A stretch of DNA of 64,000 nucleotides from Stercorarius parasiticus (Eukaryota > Chordata > Aves > Charadriiformes > Stercorariidae), in contig VWZL01002517.1 of the NCBI GenBank assembly GCA_013396915.1, positions 1 through 64,000 on the forward strand. The letters run 5' to 3'. The notes beneath the pieces were generated by a model. That model had not been told where the DNA came from, searched no databases, and saw only the letters and a list, made by a program, of their open reading frames with translations. A program made the position numbers and the translations under genes. Positions 50,063 through 60,446 of this stretch are shown here, one piece after another (position 1 is the first letter of the stretch; the number at the start of each line of letters is the position of its first letter).

Positions 50063-50134
50063 TTAAGCCTTAAATTTGCCAACATGTTCACGAGCTATGA
50101 TCATTCTTTGAATCTGAGCAGTTCCCTCATAAAT
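50063..50134 (-). pseudogene. ACADM: ACADM exon 12 (human 399-421), intact sequence
   Basis: IYEGTAQIQRMIIAREHVGK then FKA and TAA at 50065-50063. The Glu of YEGT, the catalytic base (Glu401, mature 376), is present. It lies downstream of the exon 10 and 11 stops, so it would not be reached. Confidence 0.9.
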
Positions 50135-52505
50135 CTGAAAACAAGAATTGCAATGATGTTAGTTGATGATTTTTAAAAGGTTTTAACAGATCTGCACTTT
50201 TAAACCTTCATGGCACTAATCCAGTGGAGATTAGGATGTGCAGAAAGTCACAGAAAAACTGAGAAAATTCCAGTGTGACAGAGTGACTAGTGGGCTAAAT
50301 GGTATAGATCACATACAAGATACCGAGAGGCAGCCTTGTTCTCTCAGGTGCTCTTATCTGAACTCAGTAAGGTTCTCATGAAAATAAACAGGCGTGGTAG
50401 GTAAAAAAGGATGATGAAAATTTCTTATTTGAGGAAGAAAATTCATAGTTTAAGTTTTGCAAAGTAGGATTTAAAACAATAGGCAGAGGGGAGGCGGTGG
50501 CTTGTGCTGAAACTGCTGTATTTCCTTTGACTAGCCTTTCAAGGCCATACCACTGTTCTCTTTGATCCATTTATTTCCATTGCTTCTTGTTAACTAGTGC
50601 TCTCTCTCATACAGTTTTGTTTGGTTTTTTTAATCACACATTCTTGCATTTTCTTCTAGAAACAGTTTGCATCATCCCTCTGTTCTATTTGTTTGCTGTC
50701 AGCAAAGTCAAAGGTAGACAGCAAGGCATATAGGAAGCTCTCATGCGGAAGGATGCTCCACAGGTATACTGCGATGTAATGCCAGGGCTGAGGCAACACA
50801 GTTGAGGGGTTTTAAGTGTTTCAGCGCCCAGTTCTGCCAGAACCTGGTTTGGCAAATTGCTCGAATTCATGCAAATTCACTTTGTCATTCACTTATAGGA
50901 ATAATCTTCCCAAGAACCTTACAAAGCTTTTTTGAAAATAAAGAGGCTGTAACCTGTGTTCACATTAGTTTTTTGGTTCAGAAGAACTTGTTCATTCACA
51001 AAGCAAATGCTCTAACTGGTGCTGCTTACCCCATGTTGACCTGTTGCATAGGGCAGATTGTGTTTGGTGAATACTCAGTGCCTTTTGGAGCGAACTGAAA
51101 TGGAAACTCTGCTTTCTCTATGTACCAAACACCCACCAGTCCCTGACGAAGACATAATGGCCCAAGCCTACAGTGCACCCTTGCAATGGCATGCATATTG
51201 GGGATATAGAGTCCGAGGGACCAAAGAGGCTTGCTGTGCACTCAACCTGCCCGAATGGCTTGTTGGGGCAGTTGTGGGGCCTCGGCAGCCCTTCCTGCAA
51301 TCTACCAATCCGTGCCACCGGCACTGGATTACCTGCTGATGAAGACAGCCAGGGACCTCAAGCGTAAAGACATCAAAACTCACTCTTAAGTACTAACAAG
51401 AAAGGCGTTGGTTTATAAGCCAATGGAAATTGGCTTCAATGGAAATAGTTTCAAGAATCATTGACAATTAAAGAAGGGCAGTTTTCCAAATTTGAGAAAG
51501 GAAACTAAGTTAGAGTTTCTACCAGACTAGCCTAGACTTGTAGCCAGACAAACCTAGAGCAGAGTAAGGACATGTAAAAACGTTACCAGTAAACACAGAA
51601 TTGTGTAATACCGAAAAAGATCAAATACATGGAAGAAAAGTTGGAAAACCAAGTTTTTGTATGTGAAACACATGGCCAAAAGCTTATACCAGCTGGAAAT
51701 GGGCAGCAATACAATAAAGCACAGTGAAGTGCAAAGTATAAACAAGACACATGGACAAAATAATTGTAGAGTCAAAAGCCTTTCCTGAATTCTTTTGGGG
51801 ATGAAGCGGAACAGAAAAACACCAATAATATAATACTAAATCTGATTAATCTGAACAATTAAAAAAAAAAAAGCCTACTTAGCCATGCATTTGTGATGGA
51901 TCAGTGTAATGGAAAATCTAAGTATCTGGGATCCTGTAAAATCACTCTCAGCTTTCAAATAAAGTTCTAACCCTCACACCACCTTTCTCCAGAAAAGCAT
52001 GCAACCTGACAGGAAAAAAGCCCAATCATAATAAAGTTCAATTAATCATTCATTTCCTCACTCACAGGAGCGCAATTAGTTCTAAGAACCTTTAGATTCC
52101 AAAATAGTCGTTGTCTTTCCTTAAATAGAGAAAATAAATTCTTGGCTAGTGAGAATAATAGTTTTAATTTTAAAGACAGCTGTAAGATAAATATTAACTA
52201 CCTAGAATCTTAAGAATGACAGGTGTTATAGCTAACTAACATTCCAGGTCATGGTCTGCATGCACTTCTTGATATCATCTACTTTGATATATTTTATCTA
52301 GTCGCTATTAATGTCATATAATGTCAATGTCCACAAAGATTACTGGTTTTGCTGAACACAATTAAAATATTGGCGCTGAATAAAGAATTTTAGCATGGTA
52401 TATGCTAATAGAAGAATTATGACATAACATGGAATAATTTCTTGGCAGTAACACTGCGAAAAAGCCCTGGGGATTGAGGGTGACAAGAGTCTCTCTTTTT
52501 CTTAC
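50135..52505. other. ACADM intron 11
   Basis: About 2.4 kb with intact GT-AG ends. A GC-richer patch at about 51050-51400 is open on both strands for 60-100 codons, but I recognise no protein or repeat family. Confidence 0.5.
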
Positions 52506-52754
52506 CTGGTAGATTTTAGCATCTCTCATTAGTTATTCTACAGGATATTCAGTATTAAATCCATTCCCTCCAAAAATCTGTACTGCATCGGTAGCTACTT
52601 GGTTTGCAACGTCCCCAGCAAATGCCTTTGAGATGGAGGCATAGGAGGTGTTCCTGCGACCGGCATCCACTTCCCAGGCAGCCCTCTGGTACGCCACGCG
52701 AGCCAGCTCCACTTCCATTGCCATTGCAGCAAGCGAGAAAGACACTGCTTGGTG
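52506..52754 (-). pseudogene. ACADM: ACADM exon 11 (human 316-398) with in-frame TAA
   Basis: Exactly 249 bases as in human, starting HQAVSFSLAAMAMEVELARV. The frame is open to FNTEYPVE, then TAA (52535-52533) replaces Lys389, after which LMRDAKIYQ continues. Glu at 52715-52713 stands where human has Lys329. Donor CAG|GTAAGA is intact. Confidence 0.93.
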
Positions 52755-53420
52755 CTACGAATGAGGACATAAACTCGGTTAACGTTGGCAGCTTAAAATT
52801 CTGTGACAACCCAGAAAAATACAATCTTCTTAATACAGCGATCTCTTCAACAAACTCAGTAAATTGTACTAGAGGGGTTCTACAGAATATGGATCAGGCT
52901 CTGATAATTGTATGCTGAATTAGACTTTTAAGTTTCCAATTCTTAAATCCATATAGTCAGAGGGATTAAATACCGAATTAAGAAGTTCTTCTTTACTGCT
53001 TATGAGATTGGTATTTACCTTGCTGTTTATTCATATTTCTTTAAAACTGCTAAGCGGTGTGATATGCAATGTATTATATTATTATTAATACCGTACATCG
53101 TTTCACATACTTCAGAGGTTTTTTGCTTTCCTGAAAATCCCTGTTTATTAGCACTGAAGAACTTAAGTATGCCCTGGTAGTACATGAGTTTCAGGTTTTT
53201 GGGCAGAGTTTTCTTTCGGCTTTTACTATTATCATTGATAAATTATAGAAAAATTCCTGAAGTTACCACATAGCTAAGTTTACTTAAATGGTGGTGACTC
53301 CTATACTTGGAAACCCCAAAATGGCAGAGATATAATGGAAAAATGAAGGAACTAAAGAAATCAAGCAATAACCATGACAAATCAGTAGCGTACATCTGGT
53401 GTGAAAATGTAGCTTTTATG

Positions 53421-53438
53421 TTCTCTCTCTCTCTCTCC
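53421..53438. repeat. (TC)n microsatellite (ACADM intron 10)
   Basis: About nine TC dinucleotides just inside intron 10, reading (GA)n on the gene strand close to the exon 10 donor. Confidence 0.9.
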
Positions 53439-53460
53439 ATCCCCTCCTCCCCCCACTTAC

Positions 53461-53542
53461 TTCAACAATTGCTTTCCCAAAGATTTTTCTCTCCAAAGCA
53501 TATCTAGTAGCTTTTTGCTAATCCAACAGCACCAGCTGCTAC
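53461..53542 (-). pseudogene. ACADM: ACADM exon 10 (human 284-315) with 14-base deletion
   Basis: It starts VAAGAVGLAK and ends ATRYALERKIFGKAIVE in a different frame. The bases for roughly QRALDE are missing: 82 bases instead of 96. The shifted frame meets TAG at 53506-53504. Both splice sites are intact (donor GAA|GTAAGT). Confidence 0.92.
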
Positions 53543-58950: not shown

Positions 58951-59406
58951 AAAAAAGAAAATAATTTAACTTTTTTTTCCCATGATTACTCATTTACCTA
59001 AATGCTGCCAAAGCACTGCTGTACTGCACCTAATCTAAACTGAAAAACTGCCCTTCTGGAATAAGCTCTTAAACTGCTCCAGCCTCTGTCAGAGACTAGA
59101 ACAAAATATGACCTTCTAATTTCTCTGCCTAATCATCTGACACGGTGCACCAGGGAAACATTAGGCAGTTGTAATCATGGTAGGAAAATCTGGTCATAAA
59201 TTACTAAATCATAATCTGTCTAATTTGTCTCCTGATTACATCCACACCTAGTAACGCTTGTGTGTGTCAACCTGCCTACTGATTAAATTTAGATTATTCA
59301 AGTATGCAACTGTTTATTTTATACAGAATCCATAATTACACATATGGATCTCATCTAATGCTTTTTCTTTGTTTCATTTTACAGATTAAAAAGAGTGTTT
59401 ACTTAC

Positions 59407-59476
59407 CACAGCTTTCTGGTATGTGTGAATTCATAAGACCAAGTTCCCAAGCCCGTTTTATAAGTGGAAAAGGATA
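59407..59476 (-). pseudogene. ACADM: ACADM exon 4 (human 73-96), frame intact
   Basis: YPFPLIKRAWELGLMNSHIP then ESCG, 70 bases as in human, with strong splice sites (TTTCAG and GTG|GTAAGT). Confidence 0.9.
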
Positions 59477-59587
59477 CTGAAACAGACAGGGAAAAAATCA
59501 CCACCTGATTCATCACAGTCAACACTTTAAATTGTATGCAGGTTAAGACCAAAGCCTATTTTTTCCCTTACACCAGGGTAGATTTAC

Positions 59588-59685
59588 CTCTCCGGTTTTG
59601 TCATATTGTGCAGCAACAGGAATAATTTCTTCCACAGCAAATTTACGAGCAGCAGCTTGAAATTCTTTCTGTTCATCAGTAAGTT
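59588..59685 (-). pseudogene. ACADM: ACADM exon 3 (human 40-72), frame intact
   Basis: ELTDEQKEFQAAARKFAVEE then IIPVAAQYDKTGE, 98 bases as in human. Donor GAG|GTAAAT. The acceptor tract is T-rich after a long A/T run. Confidence 0.9.
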
Positions 59686-60347
59686 CTATTAAAAAAAAAA
59701 AAAAGAAAAAGGTCACAAATTCTCTACTATCTTTAATTTTGCCAGCTGTCAGACTACGAGAAAAGCGAAAACAAGTGTGTCCTTCCAGGACAACACAAAC
59801 CACCACTTCTCGGGCCTCTCCAGGAAGCAAAAAAAGTTCAGTTTCCTCTTCCTCCTGGGAAAATACTCCTAAAATTAGGAGAATGAGGCAGATGTTGTCT
59901 GAAGGTCCTGACTATTCAGTTTGGACATCCAGCTGCCAACCCCTTATAATTTGCTTTATGCATATAATACGCCGAGATGAGGATGAATTTCTTTATACCA
60001 TTTCTTTATAACCAAGTTCAACTATGACTACTTTTAGTTACTTTAACATTGTAAACAGCAATGTGAGATAATTATTCAAAGCACTTTGGCAATTAAAAAA
60101 GCTTAAGACAGACATGAGTTAAAAAAAAGAAGAAAATCTTAAAAACACTACACGCATACCTGACTTGCCTGAGCTGAGGAAGAAAGTAATTTCAGTTTTC
60201 GAACATTTATTTATAGGAATAGAAATCTATTTAGAAATAGCACCTTCATTTTAAATTCATGTTGAACTGTAATAGAGGATTTTATTTTTTTTAACTCTGC
60301 AATTTGCCCTGAATTGCTATGTTTCTTTCAAAAACTGTAGTACTTAC

Positions 60348-60446
60348 CAAAGCTAAAGCCAGCTCCAGGTTTGCCTACATGTAAGTTGGAGCAGGTTTAC
60401 TAGAATGCGACCTCCACCCATGCCCCGCCATGGTTTGAAGCATTCA
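60348..60446 (-). pseudogene. ACADM: ACADM exon 2 (human 11-40), frameshifted with stops
   Basis: Transit-peptide exon. After acceptor TCTCTTTAG the phase-0 frame starts TGA (60446-60444), reads MLQTMAGHGWRSHSSKPAPT, resembling human VLRSISRFHWRSQ, and stops at TAG (60377-60375). The 3' part GKPGAGFSF sits in another frame that joins exon 3. Length 99 against 88 in human, a difference not divisible by three. Confidence 0.78.

What the first reader, a model, noticed from the sequence alone, without database searches (positions are those of the whole stretch)
50063..60446. ACADM appears to be a unitary pseudogene at its ancestral locus
Eleven exons keep order, splice sites and mostly exact lengths, yet the reading frame is broken independently in exons 2, 10 and 11, and conserved positions are substituted throughout. 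Neighbours RABGGTB and MSH4 are intact in the same assembly, so general sequence error is an unlikely cause. Loss of MCAD would be a striking change in fat oxidation for a bird unless another copy compensates.
Basis: partly seen in the sequence, partly recalled or inferred. Interest (0 to 1): 0.88.

Follow-up and report, generated by a model that had tools for sequence, protein, structure and literature searches.

The report
Broken fat-burning gene in a bird
In this bird genome the gene for MCAD, an enzyme that burns fat, lies broken in three exons beside its usual neighbours, and the work is likely done by a second copy elsewhere, because songbirds carry two lineages of this gene.

Summary
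On the minus strand, 60446..50063, lie ACADM exons 2-12 in order, with usable AG/GT borders. Exons 3-9 and 11 have the human lengths (recalled). The frame breaks in exon 2, exon 10 (14 bases short) and exon 11 (TAA at codon 389). The rest has decayed too: 11 of 139 residues invariant in 122 other MCADs are changed, against 0 in 37 of 41 hand-picked controls, and changes fall on invariant and variable sites alike (p 0.58). RABGGTB and 18 MSH4 exons are open. MSH4 has an ordinary branch (0.011) beside two shorebirds; the ACADM branch is 0.13 (median 0.019; pheasant 0.18). So it is a pseudogene at the ancestral locus, not sequence error.

'Unitary' is not shown. Songbirds have two ACADM lineages, both in Motacilla alba. 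The window's copy goes with lineage A in the tree and by intron 9, though other placements are not rejected at 0.05. Kagu, Pomatostomus and Chiroxiphia copies also look decayed, suggesting lineage-specific loss of one of two copies. The search of this bird's own genome did not complete (12 tries). Loss of all MCAD remains possible (about 15%). One codon encodes K329E, the commonest human MCAD-deficiency change.

The parts
60348..60446 (-). ACADM exon 2 (targeting region), frame broken near 60388; in-frame TGA at 60446..60444 if this acceptor is the one used
   Evidence: 88.9% identical to Amazona over 18 residues upstream of the break
59588..59685 (-). ACADM exon 3, 98 nt, open
59407..59476 (-). 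ACADM exon 4, 70 nt, open
56960..57060 (-). ACADM exon 5, 101 nt, open, invariant G97 and E124 changed
56793..56873 (-). ACADM exon 6, 81 nt, open, invariant L146 changed
55834..55964 (-). ACADM exon 7, 131 nt, open, invariant A170 and W191 changed
54568..54676 (-). ACADM exon 8, 109 nt, open; the codon for invariant W200, split across exons 7 and 8, is changed
53621..53761 (-). ACADM exon 9, 141 nt, open, invariant D246 and R281 changed
53543..53620 (-). intron 9, alignable with three lineage-A introns (z 11.3-12.7), less with three lineage-B introns (z 2.1-6.4)
53461..53542 (-). ACADM exon 10, 82 nt instead of 96: 14 nt missing, frame shift; invariant T308 changed
52506..52754 (-). ACADM exon 11, 249 nt, in-frame TAA at 52535..52533; K329E codon at 52715..52713; invariant A357 changed
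50063..50134 (-). ACADM exon 12 with the native stop, open; catalytic Glu401 codon kept at 50128..50126
63150..63650 (.). CpG-rich stretch 2.7 kb and more upstream of exon 2, possible remaining promoter; exon 1 not recognised there
   Evidence: CpG observed/expected 0.99 and 1.22
36050..47706 (-). RABGGTB, exons open, residues 2-331 of the recalled human protein covered
1419..25635 (-). MSH4, 18 exons open

Best explanation
This is a broken copy of the medium-chain acyl-CoA dehydrogenase gene (ACADM) of a bird, still standing beside RABGGTB and MSH4, and it was likely free to decay because a second ACADM copy elsewhere in the genome supplies the enzyme. Shown: breaks in three exons, loss of constraint over the readable coding sequence, open neighbours, and two ACADM lineages in songbirds. 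Inferred: that the bird of this window (probably a shorebird relative by its MSH4) keeps an intact second copy, and that an old duplication followed by loss of either copy in different lineages explains the pattern. Mechanism: a transcript spliced at the kept sites would lose frame in exon 2 or exon 10, or stop in exon 11 before the catalytic glutamate of exon 12, so no working enzyme is expected; nonsense-mediated decay of such an RNA is expected but untested.
For: One exon set with frame breaks in exons 2, 10 and 11. 11 of 139 residues invariant in 122 other MCADs are changed in the window; of 41 hand-picked control rows 37 have none, the rest 6, 3, 1 and 1 (window and four bird rows re-run). 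At 98% conservation it is 19 of 211, controls at most 6. Changes not seen in 8 lineage-A rows hit 11 of 139 invariant and 23 of 236 variable sites, p 0.58; each of the 8 lineage-A rows has none at an invariant site. End branch 0.13 against a median of 0.019, while the same bird's MSH4 has 0.011 against 0.027. 33-36 missense changes predict 1.6-1.8 stops under neutrality; one certain stop is seen. Two lineages: passerine B is a clade (97/91) apart from a clade (98/96) with passerine A and the window; Motacilla alba is in both, its two proteins 93.7% identical. Window intron 9 is closer to lineage A. Decay-like rows elsewhere: kagu 6 of 141, Pomatostomus 6 of 141, Chiroxiphia '-like' 6 of 147 invariant sites changed. 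[quoted passage not shown]
Against: No second copy was seen in this bird; its genome could not be searched. The old duplication is favoured, not proven: one clade for all passerine rows is not rejected (p 0.10), nor is the window within passerine B (p 0.094) or within the Falco/Ciconia/Aptenodytes/kagu group (p 0.057). By plain identity the window is as near Ciconia '-like' (89.6%) and Falco (89.3%) as Motacilla A (89.3%), with Motacilla B at 85.9%. If the duplication is confined to songbirds, a shorebird would lack copy B. A long branch alone is no proof: pheasant has 0.18, the mis-spliced Chloebia row 0.14 and Pan 0.13. In the protein tables Passer domesticus lineage A is listed on a contig of 62.7 Mb and its MSH4 on one of 58.7 Mb, so lineage A is not shown to sit beside MSH4 in that species. 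No related bird DNA was at hand, so no dN/dS was computed.
Confidence: 0.75

Rival explanations
1. True unitary loss: this bird has no working ACADM and medium-chain fatty acids are handled by ACADL, ACADS and other dehydrogenases of overlapping range.
For: The copy beside RABGGTB is clearly broken and decayed; no other copy lies in the window; an old duplication is not statistically forced (p 0.10).
Against: Two ACADM lineages in songbirds; chick embryos raise MCAD activity five-fold while living on yolk fat (PMC5836443, passage).
Confidence: 0.15
2. Tandem duplicate, a special case counted within the 0.75 of the leading explanation: an intact ACADM lies just beyond the window's right edge and this is the dead, RABGGTB-side member of the pair.
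For: The window ends 3.6 kb upstream of exon 2; NCBI-named '-like' copies in Ciconia, Aptenodytes and kagu fall in the clade of lineage A rather than with passerine B.
Against: No exon of a second copy within the window; no locus data for those '-like' copies.
Confidence: 0.2
3. Sequence or assembly error in a working gene.
For: Short N runs exist in the window (11915..11978, 48004..48022, 63363).
Against: None of the N runs lies in ACADM exons 2-12; RABGGTB and 18 MSH4 exons are open; 11 changes at invariant residues and a 14-nt deletion are not typical read errors.
Confidence: 0.03
4. Processed or stray pseudogene copy, with the true ACADM intact at the locus.
For: None found.
Against: Eleven exons with introns and splice sites beside RABGGTB and MSH4.
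Confidence: 0.01

Closest known systems
Unitary pseudogenes (such as primate GULO or UOX; recalled)
   Same: Dead copy at the ancestral locus, introns kept, intact relatives in other species.
   Different: Absence of any other functional copy is not shown here, and songbirds have two ACADM lineages.
Non-processed duplicate pseudogenes with lineage-specific loss of one of two paralogues
   Same: Multi-exon dead copy; two paralogous lineages in songbirds; signs of decay in rows of either lineage in other species.
   Different: The surviving copy in this very genome was not seen.
Human MCAD deficiency alleles (c.985A>G, K329E = K304E of the mature protein)
   Same: Codon 329 of the window copy encodes Glu, the change named the most common ACADM mutation in PMC2967532 (passage).
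   Different: Here it is one of many changes in a gene with broken frames, present in the assembly, not a known segregating disease allele.

Membership tests
Unitary pseudogene | sits at the locus of the functional orthologue | tested here: met
   ACADM, RABGGTB, MSH4 in the order and orientation of human (recalled); frog locus tags FKM82_001853 (MSH4) and 001855 (ACADM) suggest the same, though their listed contigs differ in length (45.6 and 65.8 Mb)
Unitary pseudogene | disabling changes in the coding sequence | tested here: met
   exons 2, 10, 11
Unitary pseudogene | intact orthologue in relatives | tested here: met
   long lineage-A proteins without breaks in Motacilla, Passer and Leptosomus; their locus was not seen
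Unitary pseudogene | no functional copy elsewhere in the genome | not tested
   own-genome search did not complete
Duplicate (non-processed) pseudogene | introns and splice sites retained | tested here: met
   11 AG acceptors, 10 GT donors at borders that also fit the lengths
Duplicate (non-processed) pseudogene | functional paralogue in the same genome | not tested
   paralogue lineage exists in songbirds, not checked in this bird
Processed pseudogene | introns missing | tested here: not met
Functional MCAD (ACADM) | one open frame through all exons | tested here: not met
Functional MCAD (ACADM) | catalytic glutamate (Glu401 of the precursor; label recalled) | tested here: met
   GAG at 50128..50126, but downstream of the breaks

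The most novel reading that the evidence does not exclude
A shorebird relative has lost MCAD altogether: its only ACADM is dead, and a bird that lives on yolk fat as an embryo and on stored fat as an adult breaks medium-chain acyl-CoAs with other dehydrogenases.
Probability: 0.15. Interest if true: 0.88.

Novelty: new member of a known kind. Interest (0 to 1): 0.48.

Why it matters
If a second copy compensates, avian ACADM is a case of hidden paralogy: species compared as having 'the' ACADM would carry different duplicates, which misleads studies of selection on fat oxidation in birds. If no copy compensates, it would be a natural MCAD knock-out in an animal group that depends heavily on fat, with the commonest human deficiency substitution among its changes. 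Either outcome is directly testable.

Tried and rejected
Sequence error: rejected (open neighbours, invariant-site load). Processed copy: rejected (introns). Second copy inside the window: none by tblastn. Exon 1: searched with eight bird N-terminal peptides; the candidate EAALRGRR near 63329 lacks a start and a donor, and the top-scoring one (CSVQRFPW near 63254) too, so neither is claimed. Pfam scans of three frames of the minus strand 20001-35000 gave nothing; MSH4 was then found by MutS domains and by a recalled human sequence. A first structure search with the wrong strand gave nothing. Papers: ten searches. The nine on birds, loss, duplication or this locus listed no paper on bird ACADM duplication or loss, judged by titles and the starts of abstracts; the tenth was on K304E. 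I saw passages only of PMC2967532, PMC3981736 and PMC5836443. The 41 controls (34 birds, 7 other vertebrates) were picked by hand. Trees used 33 of 128 ACADM rows and 31 of 120 MSH4 rows, picked by hand for spread. Structure prediction was not run, as it would not decide anything.
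Full report
What is there. The minus strand of the window carries MSH4 (25635..1419), RABGGTB (47706..36050) and, upstream of it, eleven exons of ACADM (60446..50063). The ACADM exons were found with a recalled human MCAD sequence, which agrees by eye with PDB chain 2a1t, and bounded by hand at AG/GT; with these borders all 11 acceptors end in AG and all 10 donors start with GT, and exons 3-9 and 11 have exactly the human lengths as recalled. Exon 1 was not recognised; a CpG-rich stretch near 63.15-63.65 kb may be what remains of the promoter.

How it is broken. Exon 2 loses frame near 60388: the part before reads MLQTMAGHGWRSHSSKPA and the part after reads GKPGAGFSF, in different frames. 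It has 99 nt where the Motacilla protein (counted by hand) implies 100 if its Q codon belongs to the exon. An in-frame TGA opens this exon if the visible acceptor is used, but the ancestral acceptor is uncertain. Exon 10 has 82 nt against 96. Exon 11 holds TAA at 52535..52533, codon 389. Each would remove the catalytic glutamate of exon 12 or shift the frame before it.

It is decayed throughout, not just interrupted. Of 139 residues that are invariant in 122 other MCADs and readable in the window, 11 are changed: G97R, E124D, L146W, A170V, W191C, W200R, D246E, R281K, T308I, K329E, A357S. Of 41 hand-picked control rows, 37 have none; Chiroxiphia '-like' has 6, Gopherus 3, two birds 1 each. Against eight lineage-A rows the window has 36 own differences; those within residues 37-418 fall on 11 of 139 invariant and 23 of 236 variable sites (p 0.58), whereas each of the eight lineage-A rows has none at an invariant site. 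That is what release from selection predicts. From 33-36 missense changes 1.6-1.8 stops are expected; one certain stop is seen.

The rest of the region is sound. RABGGTB residues 2-331 and 18 MSH4 exons are open; the first codon of RABGGTB and the poorly matching start of MSH4 (residues 1-140) were not judged. The joined MSH4 exons are 97% identical to Egretta over the whole query; in a tree of 32 rows the window's end branch is 0.011 (median 0.027) and it groups with Calidris and Pluvialis at 93/74, not a starred branch. I take the bird to be probably of Charadriiformes, an inference. The ACADM end branch is 0.13 against a median of 0.019; pheasant (0.18), a mis-spliced Chloebia row (0.14) and Pan (0.13) are as long or longer, so branch length counts only together with the invariant sites, where pheasant has no change.

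Is it unitary? Two searches of a database of 5.8 billion proteins, each listing the best 120, show two ACADM lineages, which I call A and B. Passerine B rows (12) form a clade with 97/91; a second clade of 16 rows with 98/96 holds passerine A, Leptosomus, Otus, tinamous, Falco, Ciconia '-like', Aptenodytes '-like', kagu '-like', Amazona and the window. Motacilla alba is in both (P0002, P0040), 93.7% identical over 382 residues. Introns read through in annotated proteins give a second line: window intron 9 aligns to lineage-A introns with z 12.7, 12.0 and 11.3, to lineage-B introns with z 3.6, 2.1 and 6.4; window intron 3 aligns to Ciconia and Aptenodytes '-like' introns with z 16.9 and 20.2 (200 base shuffles each). 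So the copies keep introns, as DNA duplicates do, and the window's copy is most likely lineage A.

What speaks against. The AU tests are weak: held-together trees of all passerines (p 0.10), of the window with passerine B (0.094) and of the window with the Falco-Ciconia-Aptenodytes-kagu group (0.057) are not rejected at 0.05. By identity the window is as near Ciconia '-like' (89.6%) and Falco (89.3%) as Motacilla A (89.3%); Motacilla B is at 85.9%. The age of the duplication, and so its presence in a shorebird, is open. Passer domesticus lineage A and MSH4 are listed on contigs of different length, so the lineage of the copy beside MSH4 is shown by the window itself, not by that species. The search of this bird's own genome was tried 12 times and never answered.

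A wider pattern, inferred. Other decayed-looking rows belong to different lineages: kagu '-like' (labelled low quality by NCBI; 6 of 141 invariant sites changed), Pomatostomus (lineage B by its residues, not in the tree; 6 of 141) and Chiroxiphia '-like' (lineage B; 6 of 147). Loss of either copy in different birds would explain this and the dead copy here. The five-fold rise of MCAD activity in chick embryos (PMC5836443, passage) is why I prefer compensation to total loss.

A detail. K329E, one of the 11, is the same replacement as the commonest human MCAD-deficiency allele, c.985A>G (PMC2967532 and PMC3981736, passages). In a gene with broken frames it says nothing about the order of events.

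Verdict. A genuine pseudogene of ACADM beside RABGGTB and MSH4 in a bird (about 0.95), most likely one of two duplicates, the other still working (0.75, a tandem copy just beyond the window included). No paper on it was found in nine searches on bird ACADM (listings).

Noticed in passing
window 12714..12025, minus strand: Open stretches resembling a LINE (CR1 type, name recalled) reverse-transcriptase tail in the MSH4 intron between exons ending ...DDIAG and starting GMITQ; the Mycteria MSH4 model P0147 carries a similar stretch at the same junction, so the insertion is probably shared.
   Followed up: partly
window 52715..52713: Codon 329 of the dead ACADM encodes Glu, the same replacement as the commonest human MCAD-deficiency allele.
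   Followed up: yes
P0012 (Rhynochetos), P0076 (Pomatostomus), P0009 (Chiroxiphia): Other bird ACADM rows with 6 changes each at otherwise invariant sites; possible further decaying copies.
   Followed up: partly
P0181, P0182, P0184, P0191 (Prinia subflava): Several MSH4-like proteins listed with contigs of different lengths (35.6, 153.9, 107.8 and 0.25 Mb) suggest extra MSH4 copies in this songbird.
   Followed up: no
P0004 and P0183 (Passer domesticus): Lineage-A ACADM and MSH4 are listed with contigs of 62.7 and 58.7 Mb, not obviously the same chromosome or haplotype.
   Followed up: no
window 63150..63650: CpG-rich stretch upstream of the dead gene with CpG observed/expected near 1, which suggests a promoter not yet eroded.
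   Followed up: partly
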